DNA of 64,000 bases from Tilletia caries (lineage: Eukaryota; Basidiomycota; Exobasidiomycetes; Tilletiales; Tilletiaceae), in contig JALUTQ010000004.1 of assembly GCA_032718865.1 (NCBI GenBank), positions 992,001 through 1,056,000 on the forward strand, read 5' to 3'. A program made the translations under genes and the position numbers. Within the stretch, counting starts at the first letter, position 1; the number at the start of each line of letters is the position of its first letter. The notes beneath the pieces are model-generated. The model had not been told where the DNA came from and made no database searches. It saw nothing but the letters and a program-made list of their open reading frames with translations. Positions 1,894 through 51,444 of this stretch are shown here, piece after piece.

Positions 1894-2099
1894 TCCCTGT
1901 TCCTCACATTCTCTTTACCCAACAGCACCGCTTTTCTTGTAGCTGCTGTTCCACAACTCGCCTCAGATTCCGCCTCGATGTCTCCCGCCTCTTTGGCTCT
2001 ACTTCTTTCCCTCACTTTGCTTCCTTCTTACTCCAGCATCGATTAAGCGATGACTCCACCTTCACCCTCTTTTGAATACATGATCCATACATAACACCA

Positions 2100-2350
2100 A
2101 GATGTCAGACAGATGTTCACGTAGGCGCATCTGCAATATGAATGACAGGTGATAGTGTGCATAATAAGTGAGTGACACGTGAAAAACAATGTCGTGAACT
2201 TAATACTTATGTACTGTTATATGATTGTCATGTGAATGTCACGGAGTAAAATCGGTACTTTCGTCGTTCTACACATTCAAACCACATAATAATGCAGATG
2301 ACATGCACGTGTCACATACGTTTCCACAGTCTGAACCTGTCCGAATAATC
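2100..2350. repeat. TGTCATG/CATGACA motif cluster 1
   Basis: The intergenic stretch between the helicase and the next gene has several near-copies of TGTCATGTG and GATGACATGCACGTGTCA, with related CACGTG and GTGACA words. The same vocabulary recurs at 6500-6600, 9440-9720 and 13170-13340. No coding potential is seen. Confidence 0.5.
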
Positions 2351-2400
2351 ACCTCAATGACCGGTATACATAATCTTCGAATGCTTCGAGCTACTAGATC

Positions 2401-2460
2401 ACCATGAACCCTGAACCCTGAACCCTGAAGCTTCAAGCCTCAAGGCTCAAACGTTCGAAA
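2401..2460. repeat. CCCTGAA heptamer repeat with CTTCAAGCCTCAAGG tail
   Basis: Three to four copies of CCCTGAA are followed by short CTTCAAGC/CTCAAGGC words. It resembles a degenerate telomere-like heptamer, but the unit (CCCTGAA) is not the usual CCCTAA. Related words (GAGGCTTGAGG, TTCAGGC) recur near 30760, 31990, 32830 and 35040. Confidence 0.45.
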
Positions 2461-2805
2461 CATTTCACTCTGTGAAGAATGGGCCTCTCCTCCCATATCA
2501 CAATGTTAAGATGTAGAGCTCAATAAAGGTGTATCCTTCATAAAAAAGGCTACTTCCTTGCACATACCTCTTCCCTCAATGCAGTTCAATGCCGCTGAGA
2601 CCCTTGCCTGGAGCCTCCACCCCAGGCCCTTGACCCATTCTTTTCTCATTTTCACATTCCCTTCCCCCTTCTGCTCTTTCTTCCACAGTAATGTCTCGAT
2701 CCGTCTTAAAACCCAGACCCTTGCTCCTTGGTAATGTACTTTACAAACACCCACACACCTGCCTTCGCCTTCGTTATACCTTACATCCAATCCCCTTTAA
2801 CTTCA

Positions 2806-3918
2806 ATGACGACCTCCTCCATGGATCACATTTATGCATACCAGGACCTCGTTGCGCTCGCCAAGGAGGCTGTACAGCTATGGCCGGTATACGCAGCCGA
2901 TTTTATCGAACTCATGTCCTGTTTGGATAACAACACTCCTTATTCAAAGCGTCGATTTCCTCGTCCTGTGCCACCGAACGCCAATATCGTTTATAATCAA
3001 CAGTACGTTTCGGACTTCGATAAATCTTCTGCGTGGGATCAAGAGTGCCACTGGCAGACATCGGACCCCAAGGTTCCCGTCGAAAAACATGACACAACGT
3101 CATTTCCGCAATCCTTACCTCAAGAGGAAGACATCGCTCTTCAATGCATGGAAGCAATCGAATACATCGATAGTTTGAACTCGAAACAAACGATATCGAC
3201 CAACGCGCCTGTCTTTCTCAACGGCCCGGTCGCTTCAACTTCATCCAACCCTCCCTATACAATGCATAGTATTGCCAACGTCCATAACACTGCCCCGGTC
3301 ACCTCAACTTCATCCAACCTCCTTTATATGGTTGATGGCATTGCCAACGTTTACGACGCTGCCCCGGTCTCCTCAACTTCATCCAACTCCCATTACAACA
3401 TTGCAAGCTCATCCTTCAACACCAACCAGATCTCGTCAATTTTATTTGCTCTGCCTTATACGGTCGACGACATGATCACCACACCGCCATCACCCCGAAC
3501 CATCATTCCTTATCAGGATGTACCTCGTCAAGAAACCATGGACGGCGAATTGGCCCCCTTATGCAAATTGTTCGTCAAGACGCTTAAGGCTCGACCAATA
3601 CAGCATGTCTCGGTCGGACGCATCTGCCGAATTTTGGAAGAAGCCATCAAATCGGACCTGGCATTGAAGGACGTCTTGAATCCTTACAGACCAAAAACAA
3701 GGAAGAACCAACAGGACGGCCCCCCCTTCATTCGTTCCGCCTCACACCGCATCATAATTGATATCAGCGCATACGTCTGTATCGGGTTTATCTCGACATC
3801 CTATAAGCCGCCTTCCCGAGATTTAGGTCCATCAATCATTCTCGGCGACAACACGAAGTCTTTTTTCCGCAACAAACAAGACGTTATTTGTATGGAACAA
3901 GTGATCAACAGTTTGTGA
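2806..3918 (+). CDS. hypothetical protein with three 23-residue repeats
   Basis: Single-exon frame of about 370 residues; I do not recognise the family. I prefer the ATG at 2806 (MTTSSMDHIYAYQDLVALA). In-frame codons further upstream (an ATG at 2734) would add a poorly supported leader. The middle holds three tandem repeats of 23 residues (period 69 nt from about 3225), each containing P-V-x-S-T-S-S-N and ending in I-A-N-V. The N-terminal ~70 and the C-terminal ~120 residues look globular (PLCKLFVKTLKARP; ISAYVCIGFISTSYKPPSRD). There is no signal peptide or obvious catalytic motif. It lies 0.9 kb downstream of the Pif1 helicase in the same direction and may be cargo of the same element. Only length, in-frame repeats and codon regularity support it as a gene. 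Confidence 0.55.
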   Translation: MTTSSMDHIYAYQDLVALAKEAVQLWPVYAADFIELMSCLDNNTPYSKRRFPRPVPPNANIVYNQQYVSDFDKSSAWDQECHWQTSDPKVPVEKHDTTSFPQSLPQEEDIALQCMEAIEYIDSLNSKQTISTNAPVFLNGPVASTSSNPPYTMHSIANVHNTAPVTSTSSNLLYMVDGIANVYDAAPVSSTSSNSHYNIASSSFNTNQISSILFALPYTVDDMITTPPSPRTIIPYQDVPRQETMDGELAPLCKLFVKTLKARPIQHVSVGRICRILEEAIKSDLALKDVLNPYRPKTRKNQQDGPPFIRSASHRIIIDISAYVCIGFISTSYKPPSRDLGPSIILGDNTKSFFRNKQDVICMEQVINSL

Positions 3919-4139
3919 TGATCATCGACGTTTTTCCCTCATCACATCCATTCAGCCTTCTCATTTCCTCATCCCCTGTCTTCTCCCCTTTCCAAAGACG
4001 ACATGCTGTACCTAACAACCACCATCGATAACAGCATTTGAATCTCCTTTCTTTTTCCATCTTCATCGACGTCAACAAACTGGATCCTTTAAACCGACGA
4101 CTCTCTTTCAACGCGACGAGTCAATGCGCACCTTGCTGA

Positions 4140-5790
4140 CCTGCCTTGGTGTGTGCGTTGTCTTTGTGGTGTCCAAGGCCATCGAGAGATTGGCATACGA
4201 CCGTACTCGAACTCGGCTGGACTCAACACGCACGATACTTCACATTCAGCACCTCACCACCACCACCACCCCGGTCACCGGCGTCTCCTTGCCTCGAAGC
4301 AACGTCAACCAGGAGGAACTCATCCCTCTACGGTCTCCAGTTTCGGACCTTTGCCCCGCACCCGCAGCAAGGTCAACAACACTGCCGGAGCGATCGACTC
4401 AGCACCGTCGCCTGGCACGCACACCAGCAAGACTTCCCCAGCCTCCCTCAGCCTCCCGTCATCACCTCCACCATCTGCATCAAGATCCTCACTTCGGCCT
4501 CCTTACCCCTCGACACAGTTTCGGTGGGGGCTTTGGGTGAAGCCCTGACAGCAGCGTTCGTAACACTGGTCGGGCTTGGTGGGAGAATCGGCGAGATGGG
4601 AGATGGCGCGTGGGAAGCACGCCAGTGCATGATATCGGTTGCGACATGCGGCTCGGCGTCGACACAGCGACTGGCGCTATCAGCCTGCCAGAAGAGTGAC
4701 GACGATGGAACAAGCAGCAGCAGATATCCGCATGGGACGACAGATGCACGAGCTCGGCCGCAGGCGAGTATTTGTGCATCGTCTCAGCAAGTGGATTGTG
4801 TGCTCGCCCTCCTCCTGTATTTACCCGAGCAGTGGGAGCACGACAATCAACACACACGGCCTCAGGATCGAATGTGTGGTACGGGTCATCGGGCCGCGAT
4901 CGGCATCGCCAACGTCAGCAGAAAAACCGACACGCGGTTGCGTTCGTGCCTTCCCCTCAACCACCACACCACGATCGGCCAGTTCAGCAAGTCTCGGCGC
5001 GTCAACACGACCGAGCAACGATTTTCCTGGTCAAGACTCGATGAAGATGCTCACAGCAGTCTTCGGCATACGATATATGGCCAGTGGTGCATCGCCCAAG
5101 ATTCGGAGAACCAGTACCCCCTAGCTGGCTTCAAGAGCCAGTAGGGAGCAGTTCAGCGACAGCGAGCGGCACCTGCCACACGCACGAGTGGCTCTAGCAG
5201 CCTTGGCTCTCGGTCGGCAACTCGTCGGTGGGAGCACGTTCTCTTCCCCCTCGCTCAGCCTCGCCAGCAAGTCGGCCCTGCCAGGCATCGGCAGCGGACA
5301 CGGACACGGCGTTTGGATCAGCGAAACGGTGGGAGCATCGCGCTCTGCGCAGCGGCATGCACGGTGGAGATGATACGCACATGGAGTGCTAGTGGTGCAA
5401 TTATGTTCGGCCTTGACTCTTGGTTGAGTCGAGGATACACTTCGGTCCATTCGGTGGTCGGTCACCCGTCACTCGGCGGCGCTCATCAGACTCTCGACCG
5501 CGAGTTGTTCATTCATCAGCAGTCTCACCACCACCGGCACCAGCAATCCAGCACGATAGACACCGGCGTCAACACCGGCATCAGCTTCATCACCACCGAC
5601 ATCAACATCAATTCACCTTCGTGAACACAACCACCCCCGACACCACCATCAGGTTCAGCATGACGATGACCTTCAGGTATCTTGACGGACCCTTCGGCCC
5701 ATCTGCCACGTTGTCCCTTCTCCTTCAAGTAGTTACAGTCCAGGTCTTTCCTCTTTCTGTACCTAACAACCATGTCCAACCGTAGTGGTT
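4140..5790 (+). pseudogene. possible remnant of a Ser/Pro/His-rich protein gene
   Basis: Between about 4150 and 5790 the plus strand holds overlapping open stretches of Ser/Pro/Arg/His-rich composition in changing frames, for example around 4153-4548, 4639-5124, 5188-5373 and 5420-5785. No single frame runs through, I see no convincing intron set, and no domain is recognisable. It could be a frameshifted, intrinsically disordered protein gene or simply GC-rich non-coding DNA with chance open frames. I favour a decayed gene but hold it weakly. Confidence 0.25.
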
Positions 5791-6460
5791 CATCCCCTAT
5801 ACACACACATATGCCTATGCCTTACTTCCTTTCCTCTCTTTGATCTCTCTCCTCGAGCAAGCGTGACTCGGAGACTCCGACGTCTCTTCGTCCCTCCGTC
5901 AACTCCATTACCGCCAAATATAGATCCGCGACACCGACAACGAGCACCATAATCCCTCGCCTTAAATGTCCGCTTCCGCCTTCTCTGCTTTCTCCGCTTC
6001 CATCTACCCTGCTTCCCCTCCTGCTTCTCCTTCTGCTTCTCCCTCTCTCTCACGCTCTCCTGATTCTCGTCTCTTCGACTGAGACCATCATCCAACCCGG
6101 TCCCAGTCTGATCACCACTCTGCCATCCCCGCTTCAGTTCCTTTGGCATTCTGCTTCCGCCCTATCATGGGCCTCGGCCTCTTCGCCCAGCCTCGCCATC
6201 TCTTCCACTCGTCTCCTGCCTCTCCTCTTCCCGCTTGGCTCCTGCTCCCCTCCTACGCGTACTCCTGACTTCCCACCTTCTCCGTTCACAGCCCTTCATA
6301 CACTCATAGCTCAAACGTGTATATAAGAGGCCCATTTCCCTCTGTGTTCTATGACTTCTCTTCATTGATCAATCTAAGCCTGGACTACCTCACTTGACTA
6401 CTCCTCGTCTTCCTCGTCTTCTCCTCGTTCACACTTTCTTCCTCTTTCCACAGACTTCCC
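5790..6460. other. pyrimidine-rich intergenic stretch with TATA motif, no gene seen
   Basis: CT-rich on the plus strand, with a TATATAA motif at about 6320-6326 followed by pyrimidine runs, as in fungal promoters. No convincing coding sequence follows it, so its target is unknown. Confidence 0.35.
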
Positions 6461-6499
6461 TTTGCTGTCCCTGACACTGACACTCGACTGTCATCTACA

Positions 6500-6600
6500 T
6501 TTTCAAATGGTATACATATCATCACATGCAGATGTTATCTGCATGTCAACTGGAAAGCATTCACATAAATGCATGTCAAGCATATGCAGTACTGTACCTC
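6500..6600. repeat. TGTCATG/CATGACA motif cluster 2
   Basis: Contains CATCACATGCAGATG, GCATGTCAACTGG and AATGCATGTCAAGCATATGC within about 80 nt, downstream of the 3' end of the kinase gene. It shares its word content with the other clusters. Confidence 0.45.
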
Positions 6601-6741
6601 AACCTGCACACCAGCTCACCTCTTGGGAACCATTGGTGGATAGACTGGAGTTGGACTCATACTCACTCAGTGCGCATGTGCTCGTCTCTGTTGAGCATCA
6701 GAAATCTCCACTGTGATTCTTTCACGTCACGCTTGAAGCTC

Positions 6742-6742
<1 letters not shown>

Positions 6743-6787
<45 letters not shown>
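6743..6787. repeat. (ATC)n microsatellite
   Basis: About fifteen uninterrupted ATC triplets, 25 nt past the stop of the minus-strand kinase gene. Non-coding in that gene. Confidence 0.9.
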
Positions 6788-6812
6788 GAATTCATTACGG
6801 ATGCGGAAGAGG

Positions 6813-9305
6813 TTAAAAAGCATGGACAGTGGGAAGTTCACCAGGCGTCGCCACAGGAACAGTGCCATGGACATGGTACCTAAAAGCACCTGCCACGCAT
6901 GTAGCTCCTGTCCGCGTCGCTGGGTCCAACTTGAGGCAACTGTCGCGCACTAGACACACATCCTTGCACGTGTACAGATCATACCGAAGAGGCAACTGCA
7001 CGGCCCTTCTGGGCTCGAAGCGGACGACTCCGGGCGGGGGAGGGTCACCTTCGCTCATGGAGTCGTCGCCTTCGAAGACTCCCGGCAGAGCCTCCGCTCC
7101 TGGAAACACTTCGCCCTCGCATCCCGTATGGTTGAGGATCTTCTCCATGACCACCAGGGGCTGATCGCTGTTCCAAGGCACATTGCCGGCCAAGAACTCC
7201 GTGACGATGACACCGAGAGACCAGACATCGGCTGCCACTGTTCGTCGATTGGTCCGAAACAGAATCTCCGGAGCGCGATAGTTGAGCGAACAAAACACGC
7301 GCCGGCTCGAAGGATTATTCGTCACCTCTTCGCTGAGACCGAAGTCAGCAATCTTGATGTCATTGTTCTGTCCTACGAGAACATTTTCCGGCTTGAGGTC
7401 GCCGTGGTGGATTCCCTTCCGATGTAGATACCCGAGTCCGGCAGCAATTTCCTGCACGTAGAACTTGATGGCACCAACCGTTGGCCTTCTATTGTGGTCA
7501 TAGATGATTGCCCGCAGGTTGCTGGGCATGTAGTCCATGACGAGCCATAGCTCAGCATGGTGCTGTCCAGTGGATTCCATGTAGACGACGTCGAGCAGAC
7601 TCATGACGTTTACCGACCGCTGCTTCGCCATGAAGAGAACCTCCCGCACGGCAGAGGTCGAAGGTCTGCCGGATGGTTGACATCTGGTGACCTTTACGGC
7701 GACGTTTCTTCGGTTGAGAGTATCGACAGCGTGTTCGACCACACCGTGGACGCCGCGGCCGAGATCAGTTCCCGTGAAGTTGTAACGGCCGTTCCCCTTC
7801 CGCCACAATTCCTCCATCCAGATCTCTTTGGGCGGACCCTTCTGTGACCGGAGCGTCTCGAGATCACCTTCCATTCTCCCCAGAATACCCCGCAAATTGT
7901 CCACCTGATCCTCCAGCTGCTTCTTATCGACACATGTCTTCTTGTAATCCGCCCGAAGCCGATCCCACTCGCGGTCATGTGCATAGGTTGCATTCGGGTA
8001 CGACCGCAACTTTTCCAGCTCGTCCTCCAGTCCATTGACGATCTTCCGCTGTCGAACAAGCTCGTCCTGCGCTGCCTTCAAGGAAGCCTCGAGTTGCGGA
8101 TGACTCGTCGCATAACATCCGAGCTGTCTGTCTCTATCTTCGACGACAAATTGCAAGTCGTCACGCTCTTCGATAGTGTCGTTCCGTTCCTGCTCCAGGC
8201 GCTGGTTCTCGGCCCTGGCTTCCTCCAACAGCCTCTCGAGCTCTTCAATCCGGTCGGAATCCGATTTGCGGACTTGAGATCCAGTGGGCGGCTGCGCCTG
8301 TTTCGTCTCCGTGTCGATTTCCATCGCATCGGAGCTCCTGGCAGCATGATTGAGCTGCGCCAACGACGACCGCAGCCGGGCGATTTCCTGCGTTCGTTCC
8401 CGCAGGGAGCCCTCCAGCGCCGCATTCTGGTTGAGCGCTGCGACGAGGAATGCCTCTCGCTCCGCCAAATCCTTACTCCGCGCTGCTTCCAGCTCCTTCG
8501 TGGCGGATTCCGCCACGTCCAAGCTTTTTTGGAGATCGGCCACCGCAACGTCCGATTCCATCCGTTCTTGAGCTGCTTCCGTTCGCGCTTGATGCAAATC
8601 CTCAGCAGCGCGGCGCTTCGAGTCCTGCAGCTGAACGTGAGAGTCGAGCACCTGTCGTTGCAGCCCATCCAACGTGGATCGCAGCTCTGCGACCGTGCCT
8701 TGAGATCTCTTGAGGTCCTCCTCTCTTCCAGCAGCTTCGGCCTGCAGCGTTTCCGAATGATGGACGGCGGCTGTGAGCTGCAGTTCACGTTTCCGACCTT
8801 GCTCGGTAGCATCTTGAAGACCTAGTCGGAGAACGCGGACCTCGTTCTCGAGCTTGTCGATCTTCGAAAGGACAGGGAGGACCGCTTTCGATAAGGGCAG
8901 CCGGATCCTCCCGTACACGATCGCTTCCGGATTCACCAGGACTTTATCGTCGTATTGCTCCCTCTCCTGCCGCAGATGCCGATAAAGCATAGCAGCTAGA
9001 CATGGCACCAGGAAGGGAGCGATATGTTGAATCGTGGCTTCGTCCGCGTTTTGACGAAGAAGATACTGGCGCGTAAGCTGAAGGAATCTGAATTCCATAG
9101 CCGGTCCTAAAGGACCTGTGCCTCGTTCTTCAGCGCCATCCTTAGGCGGTGGTCGCGCGAGGAAGGCTTGAGCGGCTCGACTGCCTGGACTTTGGTCGGT
9201 CCCGAACAAATACGATTCGACATCGAACTTGTCGTAAACCGCATCCGTTGGCCATCGCTCGCGGAATGAAATGGCCTGCAGATCCTTGACCTTTTCCGGG
9301 TGCAT
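6813..9305 (-). CDS. coiled-coil serine/threonine protein kinase, CDK-like, intronless
   Basis: An 830-residue single-exon protein. It phosphorylates protein Ser/Thr if active. Residues ~140-510 are a long heptad-rich coiled coil (ELEKLRS, RLEEL, LEQERNDTIEERDDL). Residues ~520-810 are a kinase domain with the glycine loop LGRGVHGVV, VAVKVTR (ATP lysine), HGDLKPENVLV (catalytic loop), IADFGLS and YRAPEILF. The domain most resembles the CMGC group (DVWSLGVIVTEFLAGNVPW). The catalytic loop is HGD, not HRD, so it is a non-RD kinase that would not need the usual activation-loop phosphorylation. The ~140-residue N-terminus may be a small globular domain. The coiled coil suggests homo-oligomerisation. 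The start ATG at 9303-9305 is the first in frame. A single 2.5-kb exon is unusual beside its intron-containing neighbours and fits a retrocopy or mobile cargo gene. Confidence 0.8.
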   Translation of the reverse strand: MHPEKVKDLQAISFRERWPTDAVYDKFDVESYLFGTDQSPGSRAAQAFLARPPPKDGAEERGTGPLGPAMEFRFLQLTRQYLLRQNADEATIQHIAPFLVPCLAAMLYRHLRQEREQYDDKVLVNPEAIVYGRIRLPLSKAVLPVLSKIDKLENEVRVLRLGLQDATEQGRKRELQLTAAVHHSETLQAEAAGREEDLKRSQGTVAELRSTLDGLQRQVLDSHVQLQDSKRRAAEDLHQARTEAAQERMESDVAVADLQKSLDVAESATKELEAARSKDLAEREAFLVAALNQNAALEGSLRERTQEIARLRSSLAQLNHAARSSDAMEIDTETKQAQPPTGSQVRKSDSDRIEELERLLEEARAENQRLEQERNDTIEERDDLQFVVEDRDRQLGCYATSHPQLEASLKAAQDELVRQRKIVNGLEDELEKLRSYPNATYAHDREWDRLRADYKKTCVDKKQLEDQVDNLRGILGRMEGDLETLRSQKGPPKEIWMEELWRKGNGRYNFTGTDLGRGVHGVVEHAVDTLNRRNVAVKVTRCQPSGRPSTSAVREVLFMAKQRSVNVMSLLDVVYMESTGQHHAELWLVMDYMPSNLRAIIYDHNRRPTVGAIKFYVQEIAAGLGYLHRKGIHHGDLKPENVLVGQNNDIKIADFGLSEEVTNNPSSRRVFCSLNYRAPEILFRTNRRTVAADVWSLGVIVTEFLAGNVPWNSDQPLVVMEKILNHTGCEGEVFPGAEALPGVFEGDDSMSEGDPPPPGVVRFEPRRAVQLPLRYDLYTCKDVCLVRDSCLKLDPATRTGATCVAGAFRYHVHGTVPVATPGELPTVHAF

Positions 9306-9439
9306 GATGGAAAAGCTGCTGTGATGTGATGATTAGGAGTAAATGGTGGTGAAAATGTGGATGGGTGTTGGTGGTGGGTCATAGAAAGGCAGAATGAGGC
9401 CTACTCTCGAGAAAACCATGAGAAGAGACAAAGAGCGCA

Positions 9440-38400: not shown

Positions 38401-41400
38401 CGGAGGACGTGTGTGCGACGGCGTGTGTGCGACGGCGGTAGTGGACACTGAGTACCGAAGTCGATACCGAGGCGGCATCGGTTGGTGCCCTGTAGACGTG
38501 CGAGCGAATCGGCATGATTGAACTCTGCAACAGAGACCGAGGTGATGCTGAAGTCAGCAGCAGCAGCTGTGATCCTGTTGTCGCCGCTGTATCGTTGAGC
38601 AGTGTTTGGCTGCGCATTTGCGGCTCTGCGCTACCGGTCCTACTCTACCACCGCCTCGTCTGCTGAGAGTCTGAACTGAGAGAGTCATCGTTCTCTGGCA
38701 TCATTGCTGTGACAACCAGACGCAATCGGCGTGTTCGCGGAAGATGCGCTCTTGACAGTTGACCCGTCGTACGAGGGGAGGGCGAAGAGAGGAGCGGTGC
38801 TGCTGCTTGTGATGCTTTTTGTAGTACCGAAGCTGATACCGAGGTCGCCTTGGGGCCCGACGCGTCGCGCAACGAGGTATGTACGCGTGTGGTTCAGACG
38901 AGGCTGCAAGAGTGGTGACGGTGAGCGCCTCGACGCGCCGAGTTGAGATGCTGGCGACGTCCATCTTCACCGTACCCTGCGCGCGACTGCCGAACCGTCT
39001 CCGAACTCCATCTTTCCCGCCTCTTCAGCAGCGAGTACCGAGGTCAGTACCGAAGTTCTGTCGAGCTCGACGCGTTGCGCAAAAGAGGAATTCAAGGCTG
39101 TGTCGATGGCGTTTCTGGTTCATCACGCGCAGGAGGATCTGTAGAGAATGGCCGGAACGCGTCGGCTGCTGACGCCAGTCTTGACGGGAAAAAGCAGTAG
39201 GGTCGACGCTCTGCGTGCTGCGATCGGCGTTGGTCCCGCGCCGCCGTTGCTACCGAGAAGGATCCGCCGAGCGGACTGTGAACGGGCCGAGAGTCCGAGA
39301 CCCCGAACAGAGAGGAATTCCGATCGACGGAGCTGGTGCTCGCTGCGCGCGACTTCTCGGCCGGTCGATACCCGATGATGAGGGCGAGGATGGTCATCGG
39401 CTGTGCACTGGCGCCCTTGGGGTCGACGAACTGGACGATGGAGCGGTAGAAGAGGGTGGCAGTGATAGGTCCCCAGAAGGCACAGCGACGACGTACCAGG
39501 GCGTCCGAGTGAACATCTCCAGGTACCACTGTCCGAACAGACGCGCGGGGTCCTTGAAATGGCGGGGCGAGTGTACCTGCGCGAGGTAGAAGTCCTTGCT
39601 GAAGGTGGCGAAGAGCATCTGCGGGATGGGCGGTTCAGACAGGTCGAGGAGGCGAAGATGGACCAGGAGTCGATGCGCGCGCAGCGGAGGGATTTCTCAA
39701 CCTCTACGCTCACGCCGGCTTGAATGTATGCGACGCGTGAAGAAGTCGGGTCTGAGGAAGAACACCAGAAGGCGAATGGCGGATGTCTCTGATGCTGGTG
39801 GTAAGAGGAGTGTTTGACGTCTTCGCCGAGAAGAAGGGTGAAGTTGACGAACGCGGAAAGCTGCATCGCGGCGGAAGGCCTCGAACCGGCTGGGTCCCTC
39901 AACAGGTGGCGTACCTGAAGAGAAGGAAGCCAGTTGCAGATGTACGGTGGTCCCTGCTAGGTCTTGAGAGCGCGGCGATGCGCCTCGATCCTGGCGTCCG
40001 CATGTGAAGCCTGATCCCACCCGAGTCCGGAGTCCTGACGCAGAAGAAGTTCCACGTTCCACCAGCTGGAGGGATTGCTCAACCTCAACTCCCGCGCTGT
40101 CGACCTTCATGAATTGATCGCCGACGTGACATTTTGACGTGTGTCGTGTGAGAGATCGAGAGGGGGTGCTGCCGAGGAAGAACATGGAAATGCCGGAAAG
40201 AGAGGCTTCGGTCGCCGGAATCGCCGTCGAGCTGCTGTTCTGCGCTTCGCTGGTGAGGAGGGTGAAGAAATGGGCGGAGGATGAAAGTCGGCTCCGATCT
40301 TGAAGTACTGGCCTTGAGGCGGAAGCTGGTAAGGAGGGAGGAGTGGAAGGAAAAGAAGAAGAAAATAGGAGATGGACCAGTCTGGGGGCGGAGACCGGCG
40401 AGAAGAACGTCGAGCTGCTAAGCTGCATCGATGGCGTGTCGAGAGCGAAGAAGACGAGTCGAAATATGAGGAACCCACGTCGAGGGCGTGTCGAACGAGG
40501 AAGGATGAAGACCGATCCAAGCTGCGTACTGGATCAGCGAGGCGCGTCGTTGGCGTGTCGGACGCGAAGGGAAAAGGTTGCTGGCATCGATGGCGTATCG
40601 TGCGCAGCTGAGAGTAAGACGGCGTCCAGCAAGGAGTTCGTCGGCGAAGGGTCCCTAGCATCCGTCGGTCGGCGAGCTAGGAGAACCACTCTCATCACCA
40701 TGTATTGGTCAGCGACCAATAGGGCCAGCGGCCACGATGCGGGCAACGCCCAAGATCACCAGCGGTAGATCAGTGAAGGTGCAAAATGCAAGAAGAAGAA
40801 TGAATGGCCAGAGAACTAGGTACAAGTGAGGAGCGAGGAAAAGTATGTGACTGAGAGAGGAGTGTGGGAAATGTGGAGGTGAAGTGTGGAGGAAGTGTGA
40901 GAAGAAAGGAAAGTGAGAGAATAAAGGGAGATTAGATAAGATAATAATACCACGTGGACCTCGTCCAGCACAGTCCTCTTGCTTCATCTCTCACGAACTG
41001 ACCACACTCATGGTCCTTTCATTCTGTTGTGCGTCCCTAGAGCCCCCTCAGAGCCTGCTTCGCCAGCTCTTTCCTTGGGTAGAGGAAGAGCGAGAGAAGC
41101 TCAAGGAGCGGCAGGCGGCAAACCAACACGCGAGCGACTTCGCTCTATCTGCTTTCCTTTCGTGCCTCGAGTGGTTCCGCGAGGTCATCCTCCAAGATGC
41201 TGCTGTGCTCAGTCTGCGTGCAGACTGGTCCGAGTTCCAGTTCTTTCCGACATGCGCGACGTTTGCGAGCGCCGAGTTCCACCAGTTTGCCGCCGAGCTC
41301 GCGAAGAGCATGAAGACGGCCGATTCGGAGTCGGAGCGGCAGCTTGCCCAGCTGCCCAAGCAGCTAGGAGCGGGCGTGAAGAATGCGCTTGTGGATTTCA

Positions 41401-42488
41401 AGTCCGATGCTGAGCGGCGCGACGAAGAAATGCACAAGAAGCTTGACCTCTGTATCGAGCTCATATTGCGTCAGGCAAACACCATACCGACACTCAACAC
41501 CTCTACCACTCCAGCCGCACACTTCATCGATACTCTTCCTTCTATTGCCTCCGCTTCTTCCTTCTCCATTACAGCCGATCCTCAAAACCCCACTCCCCTT
41601 CGAGCATCTGCTCTCGTAGGGACACCGGCGCTGCTTCCCCTCCAAATTCAAGCTGCCACACCATCATCCCCGTCCCTTTCTCTCCTCCCTCCACCCAACA
41701 GCACGTTCCTTCCCGCCAACACGCCTTCTCTCCTTTCTCTTCCCCTCGCTACCGTGCCATCGCCAAGGGCGCCCTCGGCCGCCCCACCATCCTTCGACAT
41801 CTCCGGCTCCTCCGATCGTGCCCTCGCCTACCTCAACAGGATCATGGCACCAGCATCACAACAGACCGCCCTTGCCCCTGCCTTCATCGCGCATCTCCCT
41901 GAAACCACAGCTTTGACTTCTGCTACTGCAGGAAGCGCCCAGACACAGCAGCAGATTTCGGAGCTGATGGTGAAGGAAGAAGCCCGATGGGGAAAGGAGA
42001 AGGTAGCCGCCAACGAGCCCTGGGCATATGTCGCAGAGAAGAACATCATTTTGCCAAGATACCAGTTCCGGCCAGGCCCGTCTGTACGGGACACGTGGGC
42101 GGAATACAGTGTGGGGGCAAATGGGCGATTCGGAACCAGGATGATGGAAGAGACGTGGGGAACGGGTTGGCGGTCCGGACCGGGAATGAAGCAGGAGTGG
42201 AGTCGACGAAAGAAGGTGATCGATCTCCTGGAGGACATCACCCGATCACGACCGAGCTGGACGCAAGAGCACGCGATAAGATTCATGGAGGCCTGCTTTG
42301 GGGGCTATACGGCACGGGGACTCTCTGACTGGTTGGCCAAAACGGCTGGCTCTAAGGGTAGAGCCAACGCTGCGACTCCATCATCTACATTCTCAGCCAT
42401 CACTCCTTCTCCCTCGTCCAGCACGGTCCCTGCCTTTGTTTCTGCCCGAGAAGTTATCTTCAAGCGCCTCTCGACATGGTCGCCTTGA
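35439..42488 (+). CDS. CryptonF tyrosine recombinase with GCR1_C domain, six exons
   Basis: DNA transposase of Crypton elements, which excise and insert as circles using a tyrosine recombinase. Exons 35439-35738, 36090-36360, 36489-36706, 36870-37143, 37525-37788 and 41041-42488 join in phase to a protein of about 924 residues. Recombinase residues are seen as SAFRGDSLRQLEWSDLF (Arg), KTTHAGRAASA (His-x-x-Arg), GGWSDGGAF (Trp) and RSCYDRSF (Tyr). The last exon has a coiled coil, a Ser/Pro-rich linker and a GCR1_C DNA-binding domain (PGPSVRDTWAEYSVGANGRF, GTGWR, WSRRKKVIDLLED), an arrangement known from fungal CryptonF. The last intron, 37789-41040, contains a complete LTR element. Its phase is unaffected, so the gene may still be expressible if 3.2 kb can be spliced. 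Element ends are not defined. Confidence 0.85.
37852..38123 (-). repeat. LTR (3' LTR in element orientation)
   Basis: A 272-bp terminal repeat of the nested element. It starts TGTATTGG and ends CAGCACA on the plus strand. It differs from its partner at AACGG/AGCGG and GAGCG/GAGTG, implying a recent insertion. Confidence 0.9.
38440..39060. repeat. AGTACCGA..GATACCGAGG repeats inside the LTR element
   Basis: Three copies of a GTACCGAAG-GATACCGAGG-like pair at about 38453, 38823 and 39033, the last two each followed by a GACGCGT(C/T)GCGCAA word. These are non-coding internal repeats. A related pair occurs at about 20450. Confidence 0.55.
39350..39657 (-). pseudogene. fatty-acid 2-hydroxylase (Scs7/FA2H-like) fragment, frameshifted
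   Basis: The minus strand reads LLDLSEPPIPQMLFATFSKD, FYLAQVHSPRHFKDPARLFG, then QWYLEMFTRTPWYVV. This is the conserved region between the cytochrome b5 and desaturase domains of sphingolipid alpha-hydroxylases (the family has FSKEFYLEQVH-PRH..TRTPWYVVP). A one-base shift near 39485 moves the continuation (FWGPITATLFYRSIVQF.. QPMTILALIIGY) to another frame. The histidine boxes and the cytochrome b5 domain are not found. It is therefore a captured gene fragment inside the LTR element, not an enzyme. Confidence 0.65.
40701..40972 (-). repeat. LTR (5' LTR in element orientation)
   Basis: Second 272-bp copy. The primer-binding-site-like TGG abuts its interior side at 40700 on the minus strand. 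Confidence 0.9.
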
Positions 42489-44301: not shown

Positions 44302-44320
44302 ACCATGCACAGTGCTCACC

Positions 44321-44545
44321 ATGACTCATATATGATCATAAATGGACCCAAACTCATATATGATTTATCACATGAGTGCCTGCCCAAATCGAAAACTCAT
44401 ATATGAATAACATGAGATGATCATATATGATCATTTAGTCTCATATATGACCTAAATTTTTCAAAAAAATTCCAACCACGTTTTTGACGAATCATATAAG
44501 ATCATTTCAGATCATAAATGATCATATCACCCATTTATTTATGAC
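44321..44545. repeat. left subterminal repeats of the hAT element
   Basis: AT-rich array of ACTCATATATGATCAT, CTCATATATGA, GATCATAAATGATCAT and similar words on both strands, probably transposase-binding sites. It lies directly before the transposase gene and so overlaps its promoter. Confidence 0.7.
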
Positions 44546-44773
44546 CCCTGCCACGTGGAAATAAAGTTTTTCCGCGTTGCGCGACGCGCTTGTGCACGGG
44601 CGCGCTTCGCGGCAGTCTGTGTTTACTGTTTTCACCTCATCTCGAGTCTTCGACGGACAGCAGCGCGGACCCCCTTTCAGCAACACGTCTTCTCAGCCCT
44701 TGGTCCTCGTGAATCCTCCTTTCATCAAGCATCAACCATCGCTACCGGCTACCTACATCGAGCATCAGCCGTC

Positions 44774-47700
44774 ATGGCGGTCAGCAGCGGCGCGCAAGCC
44801 GAGCTGCATGCTATCGACGCCATCGCCGTCTTCGAGTTTACCGATCAACAGATTCAAGACTATTGCAGCACCATCGACAGCCTCTCTCCAGAACTATCCA
44901 GCGAATTCATCAAAGCACTGCGCGATGTCGGTGACCGGCTCAACGAACCTGAACTTCAGCCCACAGCATTCGATGAACCCGTATGTCCATTCATCCCTTG
45001 AGCCTCTTGTTCCAGCCGTACTGACTCGCCATCGTTCTGTTCGCCTTTGTTCTAGCCTCCATGGTCTCATCCCGAGTCCCAGGAGCGATTCAGCAAGCTG
45101 CGCAGCAGCCAGGACCTCCAGCACTACCTCGACGGGACCGGAAGGCTTCCTGACACTCAAGAGCGCATCCAACAGCTTCGAGACAAGAAGGTCCTGAACG
45201 AGTACTTCAACCTTTCTCAGTCCGACAATTCTACCCAGTCCCAGGCCCCCTCTTCGTTTCTACAGCCTCCACCTGGTAACCAGGCGCAGCAGCAACAGAG
45301 TCCTCTCACCACGCGTCGGTCACGGTCTCCGCAGCTGCCGGCTCGCATGCGAGGATACGACCTTGATGAAGCCGAGAGTTCCGCCAAACGCAAAGCCCCA
45401 GGTCCATCCACACGATCCCCGTCCCGACGCGGAGCTTCTCAGGGTGCGGATCAGACCGATCGGGTGGCCTCCAGCGTTCACAGCTCCGAGGAAGAAGACC
45501 TGCCTTCCGCTCAAGGGCTCCGCAAGCGGCTGCGATCAACGCAGTCGTCATCAACGGCACAACCGACGCCGAGCACATCCACAACCGCAGCGCAAGCAAA
45601 AGGAAAGGGTCGGGCAAAACCAGGTCCGCCGTCGTCGGGACCACGATCAACCCTCGAGGAGCGCACTCTCCTCGGACTAGCCAAGCAGATCCCGTCGGCC
45701 GAGTCTCGAACACGGGCTTCGACTCGCGGTCCTTCGAACCGTTCGACCTTTGCGGGCATGTCGTCTTCCACTGCTCTCAGCATCCCCGCCCAGCGTTCTT
45801 CCACAAGTCGGAGCATGACGCTGAACATCAGCAGCGATGACAGTAGTGACAACGCGGACGGCGACGAGGACGGTACCACTGCTCGGCAGAAGGAGGGTCG
45901 CTCCGGTGGGGAAGGACCGGCAGCCGCGGCGCAAAAGGGGTCTGCCGCAACAGAGTCCGGACGAGAAGCGACAGCGGCGCCTGCTGCACTCAAGGAACCT
46001 TCCGCATCGGCCCAGGAGGCTAAGCTCGCCGCTCCTCTGTACGAGGATGACATCCCTCTCTCCCGGGCCGCCAAGGCAAGCAAGTTCGGATGGACGGTCG
46101 CTGAAGGTTACGAGGGCTTCAAGTATCTCTCCAGCTTTTGGAAAGCCGGCAAGATCAAGGAGAGCTGGTTGTGCTTGAGGTGCAACAAACCCAAGACGGC
46201 ATCCGAGCAAGGCAAGCCGACCAACCTGAAGACACACTTACAATTCTGCAAGGGGTCGCAGAATACCACGGTGGCAGCAGGATCGGCGAACGTAGCCGGA
46301 GACGAGGGCCAGGACGCCGTTCTGGGGTCTTCCACACTCGCCGGTGGCTCATACCGTGGAACCAGCGTCAGCGGTTGGCTGAATGCGCACCAGGCGCTCG
46401 ACATCGATCTTACCCGGAGGCTGGCCCTGGTCTGCGTGGTTCGGAACGCTCTTCCCTTCACGCTGATGAGCTCGACCTCCATGAAGGCGGTCATCCGTTC
46501 GCTCGATCATCGGGCGACAATATCCTTCAAGAGCGCCTCAACTATCCGCCGGGACCTTGAGACGTTCCACACGCAGCTGCGCAACAATCTGAAGCGCGAA
46601 CTCCACGGCATCGACACTTTGATGTCGGTTCAGCACGACGGCTGGACGAACAAGGGGTTTCAACATTCTTTCCTCGCCATCATCGGCTCGTACGTCAACA
46701 AGGAATGGCAGTACCAGGAACGACTCCTCTCCTTCGACGTGGTGAAGGACAAGCACTGCGGAGCAACATTTGCTGGACATCTCGTGCGCACGATCAACGC
46801 GCTGAAGGTGGACGATAGTTGGTACGGCGCGGTCACAAGCGACTCAGCGGGTACGAACACGCGAATGCTGACTTTGCTGGAGGAAGACCTCCAGGATGAA
46901 CGCATGCAAGAGCGAACGCCGGCTATACACGAGGACGATCCGGTAGTGCAGAAATTGCTCCGGGCGTCGTGCTCGTCCTTCCCAAGAGCGAGTCTCCGTA
47001 ATTCTGGGTCGTGGAATGCGACCGACTACAAGATCCTCTGCCTCAATCACCATATCAACCTCGCCGTTCGGGACGGCTTCGCAAAGTTCGGCGTCAAGCT
47101 GAAGACCAAGATTCAGCAAAAGGTCCTTCCAATCCAGCCGAAGCCTGCCATCGTGGTCAACGACGAGAACGGCGAAGTCGTCGTAGTTTCAGATGACGAC
47201 GAATCAAACTCGGAGGGCGACGACCAGCTGGCAAACCAGGGAGGGGCAGATGGGGCGGAGATTGAAGACGTTGAGGGAGAGGAGGTTCCAGAAGACGATG
47301 CACCTGGAATGGGCCCTGAGGATGAAGACATCGGGTCGGACGATGAGGGAGGGCCGGAAGCGGGCGTCAACATATCGGCAGAGGCAATCGCAGCGCAAGC
47401 CTCGTCTGCATCCATGGATACGACTGAAAACACGACCAATGCGGTGGGCAAGCTGGAAGCTTTCACGACTTACATCCATCGCAGCGTCCAGAGGAAGGCC
47501 GACTTCAGAAGGCGCATGGCGAAGGAGTATCACCTCGACGAGACCGGGCTAGCTAACGCCCCGTTCCCATCGAAACCCAACAAGACACGCTGGAACTCCC
47601 ATTATGCGATGATGAGAGGCGCGCTCAAGATCCGCGTGGCCATCGACGCTCACTGTCGGGCGCACATAGGCGTGCGCAACGAGGTTCTTGGCGACTACCT

Positions 47701-48607
47701 CCTCACCGACTCTCAATGGCGACAGCTCACGCTTATGGAGCCTATCCTCAAGCTGGCTATGGCTGTAACGAAGAAGATGGAGCGATCAGAGGGGACGCTC
47801 TGTAACGTCCTCGACTACCACGCCAGCCTGCGGGACGCGATCGACCGGAACCTCCGACTGATTGCGGGCGACGCCGACCTCGACGCCGAAACTAAGGCGG
47901 AAATGAAGAAGTTTCTCGGGGCCATGGAGAAAAAGCTCCGCAAGTATCGTGACATTGCTCTCAGGAACCGGCTCACGCTCGCAGCGTCCCTTCTACACCC
48001 CAACAATCGACGGCTCTTCCACATCTCGTACCCGGCCTATCGGGCAACGGCCGAGACTGCTCTGCGTGAGCTCCTCGACGAGCTCGTCAACACTCAAGAC
48101 AAGGGTCCGTCGCCGCCCTCCAAGGACCCCGCTGCGCCGGAAATTGGAACCAGCCTCCCTTCTCCTTGCTCCGCGGCGAGACAACTTCGAGAACAGGACG
48201 CCAACACAGAGGAGCACGAGAATCGTTCCGACAACGAAGAAGACGAGGTCGCCCAATACCTCAACCCGAAGATCTGCCCGTGGCGAGCGTCGGATGGAAC
48301 ACCGTACAAGTGGTGGCGGGACAATGAAAAGGTGTTCCCGACATTGTCCAAGTTGGCCCGAATCATCCTCGCCATCTCTGGCTCGTCTTCAGCCGTGGAA
48401 CGCGTGTTTTCTCAGGTTGCTCTCGTCAGCACAAACAGGCGCGGCAGTCTCTCAGCCGCGACGATCTCGCAACTGGTCACAACCAGGCACTGGCTCACCC
48501 ACGGCGCTGATGAGCTAGCGGGACTCTCTGAGCAGGCTCGCAAGGTTTCCCACAGTCACAAGATGCTTCCATCTCCCGATATCACCAAGGCCCGCAAGAA
48601 GAAATAG
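44774..48607 (+). CDS. hAT transposase, two exons
   Basis: DDE-type transposase of the hAT superfamily that cuts and pastes the surrounding element. Exon 44774-44980 and exon 45056-48607 join across a 75-nt intron (GTATGT..TTCTAG) in phase to about 1252 residues. After a disordered Ser-rich N-terminal ~390 residues comes a BED-type zinc finger (WLCLRCNKPK..NLKTHLQFC). Next is the RNase H-like domain with the first Asp in SVQHDGWTNKGFQHSFLAII, a second Asp in AVTSDSAGTNTRM, and the LNHHINLAVRDGF helix. There is then an acidic insertion (DDDESNSEGDD.. and following, about 100 residues) and the C-terminal dimerisation/catalytic region (LARIILAISGSSSAVERVFS), which holds the catalytic Glu. It is longer than most hAT transposases because of the two disordered parts. 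No stop or shift is visible. Confidence 0.92.
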
Positions 48608-48798
48608 CGTGTTACCACACAGAGCCACAGAGCCACAGTCCCCAGAGGCCAGAATGCAATTCAAATTCATCCAACATCGAGAACTTTACCGTTTCTTTTC
48701 TTGTGGTCCAATCACGCGAGCGACGAGAAGATGTCAATAGGAGATGTAGAGATCGATTTGAGTTGAAGATCATACTGGAGACTGGAGAAAGAGCGCGT

Positions 48799-50271
48799 CT
48801 ATGAGGTAACTTCAGAAGGGCGATTGAAGAGGGGATCTTGGATGAATGTGGCCAAGTGGCGACGCCTGTTTGGGTTGAGCAGAAGCATTCCGACGATCAG
48901 GTCGGCAGCAAGGTTGTCGATGTCTTGCAGTCTGTTGGATGCGTCCGACTTGTATGGGCCCCAGCTGGTCGAAACATCACAGTCGACCGGTGAAGGGTAC
49001 TTGCCGGGAGGGTATACCGGGCCTCCAGGGTGGCCTGTGAACTTGAGAATGTCGCGCATAGCGCCCTCCTCGTCATGGAACGCGAACAAAGGCCTTCCCA
49101 TATACATCTCGGCGATGATGCACCCGACCGACCAGACATCGTTCTGGAAAGTCGGTCGCATCGATCCCATGATGCTCTCCGGCGCAGCGTATCCGATTGT
49201 CCCTACAGTCGGAGATGTTGTGGTCGCGCCGACTGCCTGGGCCAATCCAAAGTCGACGATCTTGAGCCGGAAGTCGCGCGTGATCATAAGGTTGCCTGGC
49301 TTGAGATCGAGGTGGACCAGGCCGTGGCGGTGAATGTGAGATACGGCAGAGATGAGCTGCTTCGAGAGCTGCTTGGATCGTCGCGGTCGGAGCTCACGAC
49401 CTTCTTGGTCGTCGATCAAGTCTTGTAGAGTACCCTCGTAGAGAGGCATGATGATGTCGATGCTTGATTTCGTGTAGGTGATGTCGAGAATCTCCGCTAT
49501 GCCTTCGTTCCGTTGCACACGGGACAGAGCTTCGATTTCGAACAGAAGTCGAGGCGAGGGGTAGCCCGTCGTAAGCTTGACGCTTTCTGGCGCGCGTGTG
49601 GCCACTGAGGAGGTCCACGACCTTGACAACGACGCCGTACGCCCCGCGACCGATGAGCGAGGAGTTCTTGACGCGTACGTAGCGACCGCTCGGGGTCCAG
49701 GTCGCGGGTGCGATCCATGAGGTCGCGGGTGCGATCCATGAGTTGCCATCTAAGAGTCCGCACCGATACAAGAACGTGATCATCAGCGGCTGTCGACTCT
49801 GTGTTCCCGAGACTCGGTCTACTTACCTGGAACAAAGCCGCTCACTACTCTGTGGGCTCGGGTGGTCTCCGCCTTGACTTTGAACCATGGGTCTGTTCGC
49901 GAAGGTGAATGATAGAATATAGTAAGATCAGGTTCAGCGAGCGCAAAGCAGAGAGAGCGTGGAAGGGCGGGGTACTCACCCGAAGCAGTATCTTTGACAT
50001 CCAGCTCGTCGATTCGCTGAGGCTGCTGGAGAAGAGTCGCGTCGATTCGCTGAGGCTGTGGGAGAAGAGTTTGTGGCTGTATCGGCGACGGTGCTGGCTG
50101 AAGGGGCTTGTGTCGCTTCGCAAAACGGAGAAGAGCGATGGGTGTGTCGTCCTGGTCATCCTGGTGACCCTGGTGTGTGCTGCTGTCGGCTCGGGCACGC
50201 TTGCCGTCGAGGATAGCGACGGGCGCTGATGAGCTGGAATCGGACGATGGTCGGCGATGAGCAGATGTCAT
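48799..50271 (-). CDS. CMGC-like protein kinase inside the hAT element, with one apparent frameshift
   Basis: Ser/Thr kinase. Exons 50271-49980, 49892-49826 and 49749-48799 are separated by 87- and 76-nt introns (GTGAGT..ACAG; GTAAGT..TTAG). The N-terminus is a disordered Ser/Gln/Asp-rich region with two QPQRID repeats. Exon 3 starts in the frame giving SSLIGRGAYGVVVKVVDLL (glycine loop). The rest of the domain lies one base out of frame: APESVKLTTG (ATP lysine), VHLDLKPGNLMI (catalytic loop, HLD so non-RD), IVDFGLA, GYAAPESIM, NDVWSVGCIIAEMYMGRPLF. The shift falls at about 49590-49612. It may be a one-base indel or a sequencing error. A 21-bp in-frame duplication lies just upstream (SWIAPAT twice). 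It reads inward from the right end of the transposon. Confidence 0.85.
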
Positions 50272-50404
50272 GAAGAGGATCGGGCAGTGGGCAAGTCAAG
50301 AGGGGGGGGGGGGGCGTCGGTCATACTACAGATGGTCCGAGGTTTCCCGGGGTTTTAAACCCGAGACTTCCCTCTGAATTTCGCGCTAAGAATGCCCGAT
50401 TCAC

Positions 50405-50663
50405 GGAATTCATTGAAGTAGGTCATAAATTAAATGCATATATGATCATATATTCTCCTAAAAGATCTTAAATATATGAGTTGAGATCCATCGCCGAAAT
50501 CGTGGTCATAAATGGTCATATTTGGTCATATTTGGCAATCTCAACTCATAACTCATATATTTATGAGTGCCAAATTTCGCCCCCAAAACCTGGTCATATA
50601 TCCATGAGTAATATGATCATAAATGGTCATGTCATAAATATGAGTTCATATTTATGACATTTT
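50405..50663. repeat. right subterminal repeats of the hAT element
   Basis: AT-rich array of GGTCATAAATGGTCATATTTGG, ACTCATATATTTATGAG, ATATGATCATAAATGGTCAT and similar words, matching the left array in word content. It lies upstream of the kinase gene and probably overlaps its promoter. Confidence 0.7.
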
Positions 50664-50683
50664 GTGGTGAGCACTGACCATGC

Positions 50684-51444
50684 ATGGTCGTGGTCCAAAC
50701 ACACGCACCGTAGGCCGTCAGACGCTGATTCGCGACACGCGCACAGCACAGGAAGGGCAGAAAAGAGGTGTTGATTGCGAAGCTGTTAAAAGAAAGGTGT
50801 TTGATCAGTAGTCGTGGAGAGGAAGCACAGCTGGAGGGAGTGAGGGAGGGTACTCACTTATAACGGTGTCCTATTGGCCGTCAGCTACAGCAGAAAGCCT
50901 GCCCAACTATCCTCCTTAACTTCTGCGGCGGCGGATAGGAAAGGAACCATCAGCTTGTCAGCTGGTCCCAGCTTGGTAACCACTTCCTTTGCTATCCGAT
51001 CACGGTGATGTGCTGCTTTCTTGACCAAGCTGTGGTGACCGGCGTATAGGGCGTCTTTACTTTGATCATGATCATCTCGGTCCCAGCCGTCACCATACGA
51101 ATTCTACCTTCGGGCCGGAAGCATTTCATGTGGTTCCTGTTGTTCTCTACGCCTTTCCTCAGGCTCAGCGCTCCGTGTTGGTTCATCAGCGCATCGCCTC
51201 AGCTTCTGTGTTGATCTTCCTCAGCGCGTCCTCTGGCACACTGACTGCGGGCGGCTCTTCGTTGGAGACAGAGGAGGGAAGCAGCGTTCTGTGCGGAAAG
51301 GTGTGTGAGCTCACTCCCATTCGCATTGATTTCGATTCCAGGCTCAACCTCTCCCCCTTTCTCCAGAGCACTGCATTAGAATTCGAATTCCAACACAGCA
51401 ACGTCCAGCATCCCACCGAGGAACAAGAGGTGACGAAGGCAGCG
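50684..51444. other. intergenic / 5' region of the serine-rich gene, with a hairpin
   Basis: From about 50932 to 51000 the arms GCGGATAGGAAAGGAACC and GGTAACCACTTCCTTTGCTATCCG can pair around a central loop, giving a possible RNA or DNA hairpin. The frame of the next gene is open upstream to 51130, but that part is low in coding character. Confidence 0.4.

What the first reader, a model, noticed from the sequence alone, without database searches (positions are those of the whole stretch)
44310..50675. hAT transposon that carries its own protein kinase gene
The element is defined base by base: 12-bp inverted ends CAGTGCTCACCA and a perfect 8-bp duplication ACCATGCA. Between the ends lie only two genes, a hAT transposase reading in from the left and a CMGC-like kinase reading in from the right. 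The kinase sits snugly between the transposase 3' end and the right subterminal repeats, so it looks like a built-in second gene, not a nearby host gene. hAT elements are normally single-gene. A kinase could phosphorylate the transposase (its long acidic/Ser-rich parts offer sites) or host factors to time transposition. The function is inference; the structure is seen.
Basis: partly seen in the sequence, partly recalled or inferred. Interest (0 to 1): 0.92.

Follow-up and report, generated by a model that had tools for sequence, protein, structure and literature searches.

The report
Jumping genes carrying a shared kinase
In a bunt-type fungus, a lineage of hAT jumping genes carries a protein kinase as a standing second gene that appears to be kept by natural selection and swapped between members of the lineage, which suggests that the kinase helps the element inside its host cell.

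Summary
Window 44310-50676 (one base longer than given) is a hAT element with 12-bp inverted ends, an exact 8-bp target duplication, a transposase and a convergent protein kinase. The kinase is no one-off capture. Six complete elements at six target sites hold both genes. Genome-wide, 35 of 77 hAT dimerisation-domain places have a convergent kinase within 4 kb downstream; about 0.46 expected. Helitron control: 1 of 60. All 27 transposon-type kinases checked have a non-RD catalytic loop. Between families kinase dN/dS is 0.10-0.26 in six pairs, at saturated dS. So the kinase behaves as a trade-able cassette, which favours a host target over one private to each transposase (inference). The window copy's own kinase is broken, and so is its twin's. 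Nearest precedents: rust IS3EU elements with an alpha-kinase, and hAT7 with TET/JBP (PMC12730594).

The parts
44302..44309 (.). left copy of the 8-bp target-site duplication ACCATGCA
44310..44321 (+). left terminal inverted repeat CAGTGCTCACCA
44322..44560 (.). left AT-rich subterminal region with repeated TCATATATGA-type motifs (31.8% G+C)
44774..48607 (+). hAT transposase gene: likely exon 1 44774-44980 (my reading of the sequence), main exon 45056-48607, 1183-aa ORF, Dimer_Tnp_hAT at residues 1065-1147 of the ORF
48799..50270 (-). non-RD CMGC-like protein kinase gene (HLDLKPGN, DFG, APE); probably three exons (splice sites are my reading); reading frame broken in the N-lobe in this copy
50420..50664 (.). 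right AT-rich subterminal region (31.4% G+C)
50665..50676 (-). right terminal inverted repeat
50677..50684 (.). right copy of the 8-bp target-site duplication ACCATGCA

Best explanation
This is a member of a hAT transposon lineage of bunt fungi (Tilletia) whose elements carry two genes: a transposase, and a divergent, non-RD, CMGC-like protein kinase read toward it from the right end. Shown: the kinase lies inside the mobile unit, recurs in copies at different target sites, and sits on transposase backgrounds that do not match its own tree; in one copy the joint falls in the gap between the two genes. Indicated by rough dN/dS: it is conserved by selection between families. Inferred (about 0.45): the kinase is a nuclear helper that phosphorylates a host factor common to all these elements (silencing, chromatin, repair or cell-cycle machinery), so that it works with any transposase of the lineage; it acts in trans, so decayed copies like the one in the window can ride along.
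For: Six complete elements with an exact 8-bp duplication hold both genes. 35 of 77 PF05699 places have a convergent kinase within 4 kb downstream, 2 have one in another orientation, 40 have none; about 0.46 expected. Helitron control 1 of 60 within 4 kb, 3 of 60 within 8 kb. T. indica kinase CF319_g7414 and transposase CF319_g7415, both with longest contig 12068. Kinase dN/dS between families 0.10, 0.10, 0.10, 0.12, 0.23, 0.26; transposase 0.13, 0.14, 0.16. Tree conflict: AU p 1.05e-4 to 4e-61. Mosaic L014: transposase half 98% like L013/L015, kinase half 98% like L010/L012. A KR-rich stretch near the N-terminus in 7 of 11 rows of alignment A3 looks like a nuclear signal (my reading).
Against: No expression, activity or substrate data. 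The kinase is broken in both copies of the window's own family, while the window's transposase ORF is open, so it may be dispensable in cis or lost. Of 15 window-clade kinases read, 6 are broken (W, L009, L012, L015, L017, L019). dS is about 2 or more in the between-family pairs; closer kinase pairs give 0.33, 0.50 and 1.0 and one distant pair gave no value. L014 lacks its kinase-side terminus, so the mosaic may postdate insertion. A single origin of all the kinases is not shown: L024, L032 and L033 fall outside the window's group in the tree, on long branches. A swapped kinase could still act on a site conserved in all the transposases.
Confidence: 0.6

Rival explanations
1. The kinase is a regulator of its own transposase: it phosphorylates the long acidic and Ser-rich linkers and so times or limits transposition.
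For: Convergent layout beside the transposase in 35 of 77 places; acidic and Ser-rich stretches in the 1183-aa transposase (my reading).
Against: Kinases sit on differing transposase backgrounds, and the same kinase clade accompanies a transposase only 27% identical to the window's (C22:1174093). Neither fact excludes a shared phosphosite.
Confidence: 0.25
2. Passenger cargo: a kinase was captured, confers no benefit on the element, and is carried and recombined passively.
For: Broken in 6 of 15 window-clade copies read; PMC12730594 section 4.1 calls the transfer of TET/JBP genes between transposons passive.
Against: Between-family dN/dS well under 1 and like the transposase's, though rough; the 35 convergent places fall into about 14 transposon groups by my grouping of the lists.
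Confidence: 0.17
3. One-off capture or accidental adjacency of a host kinase gene.
For: None found.
Against: Six complete elements and the 35 of 77 tally, neighbouring gene numbers in T. indica; the four host kinases with a readable motif are HRD kinases and fall outside the window's kinase group.
Confidence: 0.01

Closest known systems
TET+ IS3EU DNA transposons of rust fungi (Kojima 2025, PMC12730594)
   Same: Fungal cut-and-paste element with a kinase gene and a transposase gene in opposite orientations.
   Different: IS3EU superfamily with 6-bp duplications and an ALPHA-kinase (a different kinase superfamily) plus a TET/JBP gene. Here hAT, 8-bp duplications, PF00069 kinase, no TET/JBP match in the four ORFs scanned.
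hAT7 transposons of Puccinia with TET/JBP (PMC12730594)
   Same: A hAT element with a standing second enzyme gene that is shared between transposon lineages.
   Different: 7-bp duplications; in the three families named in section 25 the TET/JBP gene is upstream of the transposase in the same orientation; no hAT7 kinase is mentioned in the passages I read.
Canonical single-gene hAT elements (Ac, hobo, Hermes, Restless; recalled)
   Same: CAGTG-type ends, 8-bp duplication, dimerisation domain, subterminal repeats, short internally deleted copies.
   Different: No second gene (recalled).
CMGC kinases (CDK, MAPK)
   Same: Best matches in the PDB by sequence (best 60 of 2113 shown).
   Different: HRD arginine replaced in 27 of 27 transposon-type or Tilletia kinases checked; no PSTAIRE-like helix (recalled motif, my reading); a W.PP..WR..GRY stretch before the domain in most.

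Membership tests
hAT superfamily | 8-bp target-site duplication | tested here: met
   Window and 5 further elements, six different 8-mers, all exact
hAT superfamily | short terminal inverted repeats of CAGTG type | tested here: met
   Perfect in the window; 0-2 mismatches over 11 bases in the other five
hAT superfamily | C-terminal dimerisation domain | tested here: met
   PF05699 E 3.9e-14, 52.6 bits against a cut-off of 21.4
hAT superfamily | DDE catalytic residues | tested here: inconclusive
   Candidate motifs HDGW 527, SDSAG 595, AVERVFS 1113 found; assignment is recalled, no structure used
Eukaryotic-type protein kinase (PF00069) | domain score over curated cut-off and catalytic residues | tested here: met
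   134 bits against 31.7 in the window ORF; P-loop, ARKR lysine, HxD, DFG, APE in intact relatives; the window copy has them in two frames
CMGC kinases | CMGC subfamily by phylogeny | tested here: inconclusive
   Nearest PDB chains are CDK and MAPK, but only four host kinases were in the tree and branches are long
IS3EU with alpha-kinase | alpha-kinase gene and 6-bp duplication | tested here: not met
   Kinase matches PF00069, no alpha-kinase match; duplications are 8 bp
TET+ hAT7 | TET/JBP gene and 7-bp duplication | tested here: not met
   8-bp duplications; no such domain in the four ORFs scanned

The most novel reading that the evidence does not exclude
Bunt fungi harbour a mobile family of non-RD kinases that lives on DNA transposons, is traded as a cassette between hAT lineages (and perhaps other element types), and serves as a counter-defence: a transposon-encoded eukaryotic kinase that disarms host silencing or repair, as viral kinases do for viruses.
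Probability: 0.3. Interest if true: 0.9.

Novelty: new variant of a known kind. Interest (0 to 1): 0.74.

Why it matters
Cut-and-paste transposons are usually thought to need one protein. A hAT lineage that keeps a kinase and exchanges it between transposase backgrounds would show a second, separately inherited function, parallel to TET/JBP genes in rust transposons. It makes a testable question out of how eukaryotic DNA transposons manage their hosts. It also warns annotators that part of the kinases predicted in Tilletia genomes are transposon-borne.

Tried and rejected
One-off capture of a host kinase: rejected. Congruent co-descent of kinase and transposase: rejected. Chance adjacency in TE-rich regions: rejected by the Helitron control, 1 of 60 within 4 kb, that one lying beside a hAT-kinase locus; 3 of 60 within 8 kb. 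Kinase at window 6813-9332 as part of the Helitron that begins before the window: left open. It lies more than 8 kb from the Helitron N-domain, so the distance test cannot settle it. Structure prediction of the T. laevis kinase P0014 gave a poor model (mean pLDDT 48.1, 11-row alignment), so no fold search was made. Whether the L029/L031 family carries two kinases in one element stayed open: homology runs to the limits of the stretches read. Nine searches of the paper library for a kinase-bearing hAT (listings only, 20 of 865 papers listed) showed no such element; that covers open-licence PMC papers only, and Repbase was not searched.

Rows left out: the kinase tree left out the broken or split kinases of L009, L012, L015, L017, L019, L023 and L037, the 225-aa P0024, the second kinase of L029/L031, and four of eight host stretches fetched (L040, L041, L042, L045), in which the script found no ORF with its motif. 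It used only residues 62-316 of the window's kinase ORF. The transposase tree used one ORF per locus and left out P0003, L011, L016, L017, L019-L023, L031 and L034. The tally used 150 listed Pkinase matches (table of 154, cut) plus 9 (one typed twice). The list used was a little shorter, mostly second pieces of kinases already listed. L024's kinase is counted as convergent although a stretch that looks like a retroelement to me lies between it and the transposase. All three protein searches scored only the candidates sharing most words.
Full report
OBSERVATION. The stretch 44310-50676 has perfect 12-bp inverted ends and a perfect 8-bp duplication ACCATGCA. The right end is 50676, not 50675. 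The left gene is a transposase: 1183-aa ORF at 45056-48607, Dimer_Tnp_hAT E 3.9e-14, candidate catalytic motifs at residues 527, 595 and 1113 (assignment recalled). The right gene reads toward it: ORF 48799-49749 (-) with Pkinase E 8.1e-39 over profile positions 44-263. The P-loop segment is in another frame of the same exon. Relatives read through this place, so the window's kinase is broken; its twin on contig C5 (98% identical element) is broken at other places. N-terminal exons and two introns are my reading of splice signals. AT-rich repeats lie just inside both ends.

HOST. The transposase search gave 13 proteins (only the 7992 candidates sharing most words were scored): 10 T. indica, 1 T. 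horrida, 1 T. controversa, 1 weak unnamed JGI protein. The L010 kinase is 99% identical to T. laevis P0014 over 96%, and the L036 kinase is 100% identical to a T. caries partial protein over 58% of the query. So I infer a bunt fungus near T. caries/laevis/controversa; this rests on transposon proteins only. The assembly has 38.1 Mb in 40 contigs.

IS THE KINASE PART OF THE ELEMENT? Six elements have both ends and an exact 8-bp duplication, each a different 8-mer: window ACCATGCA, L009 TATGTGAC, L011 CTTCCTTA, L012 TCCTGAAT, L013 GTCGAGGG, L018 GATTCAAT. All six contain transposase and kinase sequence between the ends. L010 is like them except for small differences at one end and one base of the duplication. 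Short copies share both ends (276 and 241 bp) but no genes; 2 of 4 read (L025, L026) have an exact duplication, L027 and L028 do not. They are internal-deletion derivatives, not full-length kinase-free copies.

GENOME-WIDE TALLY. The hAT dimerisation domain occurs at 77 places. A protein kinase lies within 4 kb downstream and convergent at 35 of 77, in another orientation only at 2, and none at 40; about 0.46 convergent cases are expected by a simple estimate. The 35 fall into about 14 groups by my grouping, so they are not 35 independent cases. The 20 best-scoring places (77-92 bits) look like another hAT group: 19 have no kinase and 1 lies beside a kinase-bearing element, an internal control. 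Helitron N-domains have a kinase within 4 kb at 1 of 60 places, beside a hAT-kinase locus, and within 8 kb at 3 of 60. By my grouping, the window's transposase finds 32 loci, 25 of them with a convergent kinase. Of the other 7, 3 are fragments or truncated (L016, L020, L022) and 4 (C30:717332, C5:2159572, C5:1625827, C1:244981) were not read. So some related transposases may really lack it.

OTHER SPECIES. T. indica kinase P0019 (CF319_g7414) and transposase P0005 (CF319_g7415) have consecutive gene numbers and the same longest contig, 12068 bases. This is adjacency by record names; I did not read the contig. At E <= 1e-20, 12 of 13 proteins found by the kinase profile are from Tilletia and 1 is from Cafeteria (29% identity). 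A broader profile of divergent types gave 6 Tilletia proteins first and then weaker kinases, many bacterial or unnamed, among the 120 of 217 listed.

WHAT KINASE. The nearest solved structures by sequence are CDKs and MAP kinases (best 60 of 2113 shown). Of 32 proteins, all 27 transposon-type or Tilletia kinases have a non-arginine residue in the H-x-D motif (HLD, HCD, HGD, HFD, HTD); the 4 host kinases and the Cafeteria protein have HRD. The hosts are 4 of 8 fetched, those in which the script found its motif. The aspartate is kept in all 27, and DFG in 26 (none was found in P0023); the L010 type and P0016/P0025 have T for the catalytic-loop lysine. A motif of the form W.PP..WR..GRY precedes the domain in most (my reading). 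An RTC4-like domain is seen in the L030 type (E 2.2e-4, below cut-off) and is precomputed for T. caries P0029. In the tree the window-type and L030/L036-type kinases form one group (96/93); L024, L032 and L033 fall outside it on long branches, so one origin for all is not shown. The AlphaFold model was poor.

SELECTION. Between-family kinase dN/dS: L010/L018 0.10, L010/L034 0.10, window C-lobe/L013 0.10, L013/L010 0.12, L021/L010 0.23, L029/L021 0.26; L030/L036 gave no value. Closer kinase pairs: L018/L034 0.50 (dS 0.16), L010/L014 0.33, L010/L011 1.0 (four changes). Transposases: 0.13, 0.14 and 0.16 between families; 0.41 and 0.47 for L013/L015 and L010/L012; 0.96 for the window and C5. dS is about 2 or more in the between-family pairs except L010/L013 transposase (1.7) and L021/L010 kinase (1.9), so the values are rough. 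Among kinases of the window's clade that I read, 9 of 15 are open through the domain and 6 are broken.

SWAPPING. In the transposase tree L010/L012 and L013/L015/L014 are sisters and the window group is next. In the kinase tree the window joins L013 (100/100), while L010, L011 and L014 join L018 and L034 (97/94). Forcing the transposase grouping on the kinase data is rejected (p 1.05e-4, 4e-61, 5e-10), and the reverse too (6e-8, 4e-49). The groups were named after seeing the trees, which weakens the p-values, but the likelihood gaps are 54-217 units. L014 shows a joint itself: bases 1037-5352 are about 98% like L013/L015 and 5350-7370 are 98% like L010/L012; the joint falls between the transposase ORF's end and the kinase ORF's end. 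Its kinase-side terminus is missing, so it is not shown to have moved as a mosaic.

MECHANISM. A kinase that is conserved but re-paired with diverged transposases is more easily explained by a substrate that all elements meet in the same nucleus than by a private transposase substrate. I give the host-factor reading 0.45, regulation of the transposase 0.25, passive cargo 0.17, and leave the rest open. Trans-action would explain why copies with a broken kinase persist. All of this paragraph is inference.

KNOWN. Kojima 2025 (PMC12730594; passages from the abstract and text; sections 13 and 25) reports TET/JBP genes in many fungal DNA transposons including hAT7, and says that all TET+ IS3EU families hold a TET/JBP gene between transposase and alpha-kinase genes, the latter two in opposite orientations. 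PMC4469406 (passages) notes that the alpha-kinase family is highly expanded in rusts. Nine library searches (listings only) showed no hAT element with a PF00069 kinase. I therefore rate this as a new variant of a known kind.

Noticed in passing
window 6813-9332 (-): A second kinase of the transposon type: 839-aa ORF with a long stretch that looks like coiled coil, a W..LWR.GNGRY motif and non-RD loop HGDLKPEN. No PF05699 place lies nearby; relatives occur on C17 (two, opposite strands), C13 and C34 among others.
   Followed up: partly
window 295-1893 (+), with C4:989464-990138 just before the window: PIF1-like helicase that probably belongs to a Helitron whose N-domain (1341-aa ORF) starts upstream of the window.
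   Followed up: partly
window 40917-42488 (+): ORF with NDC10_II and GCR1_C domains, possibly a Crypton-type recombinase or relative (recalled association).
   Followed up: no
L029 (C22), L031 (C40), C4:1628198-1630371: Two different kinases lie in tandem after a distant hAT transposase at three places; C22 and C40 share at least 6.2 kb at 94-99%, and the ends of the unit were not reached.
   Followed up: partly
L014 (C35:420000-429500) 5350: Mosaic element: transposase half of one subfamily, kinase half of another, joint between the genes.
   Followed up: yes
L030, P0029: Kinase ORF preceded by an RTC4-like domain (PF14474) in another kinase-bearing hAT family.
   Followed up: no
L023 (C4:977000-986500) and L024 (C36): Rearranged copies in which kinase and hAT transposase pieces and an ORF that looks like a retroelement to me lie together; the two loci share pieces at 98-99% in different order.
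   Followed up: no
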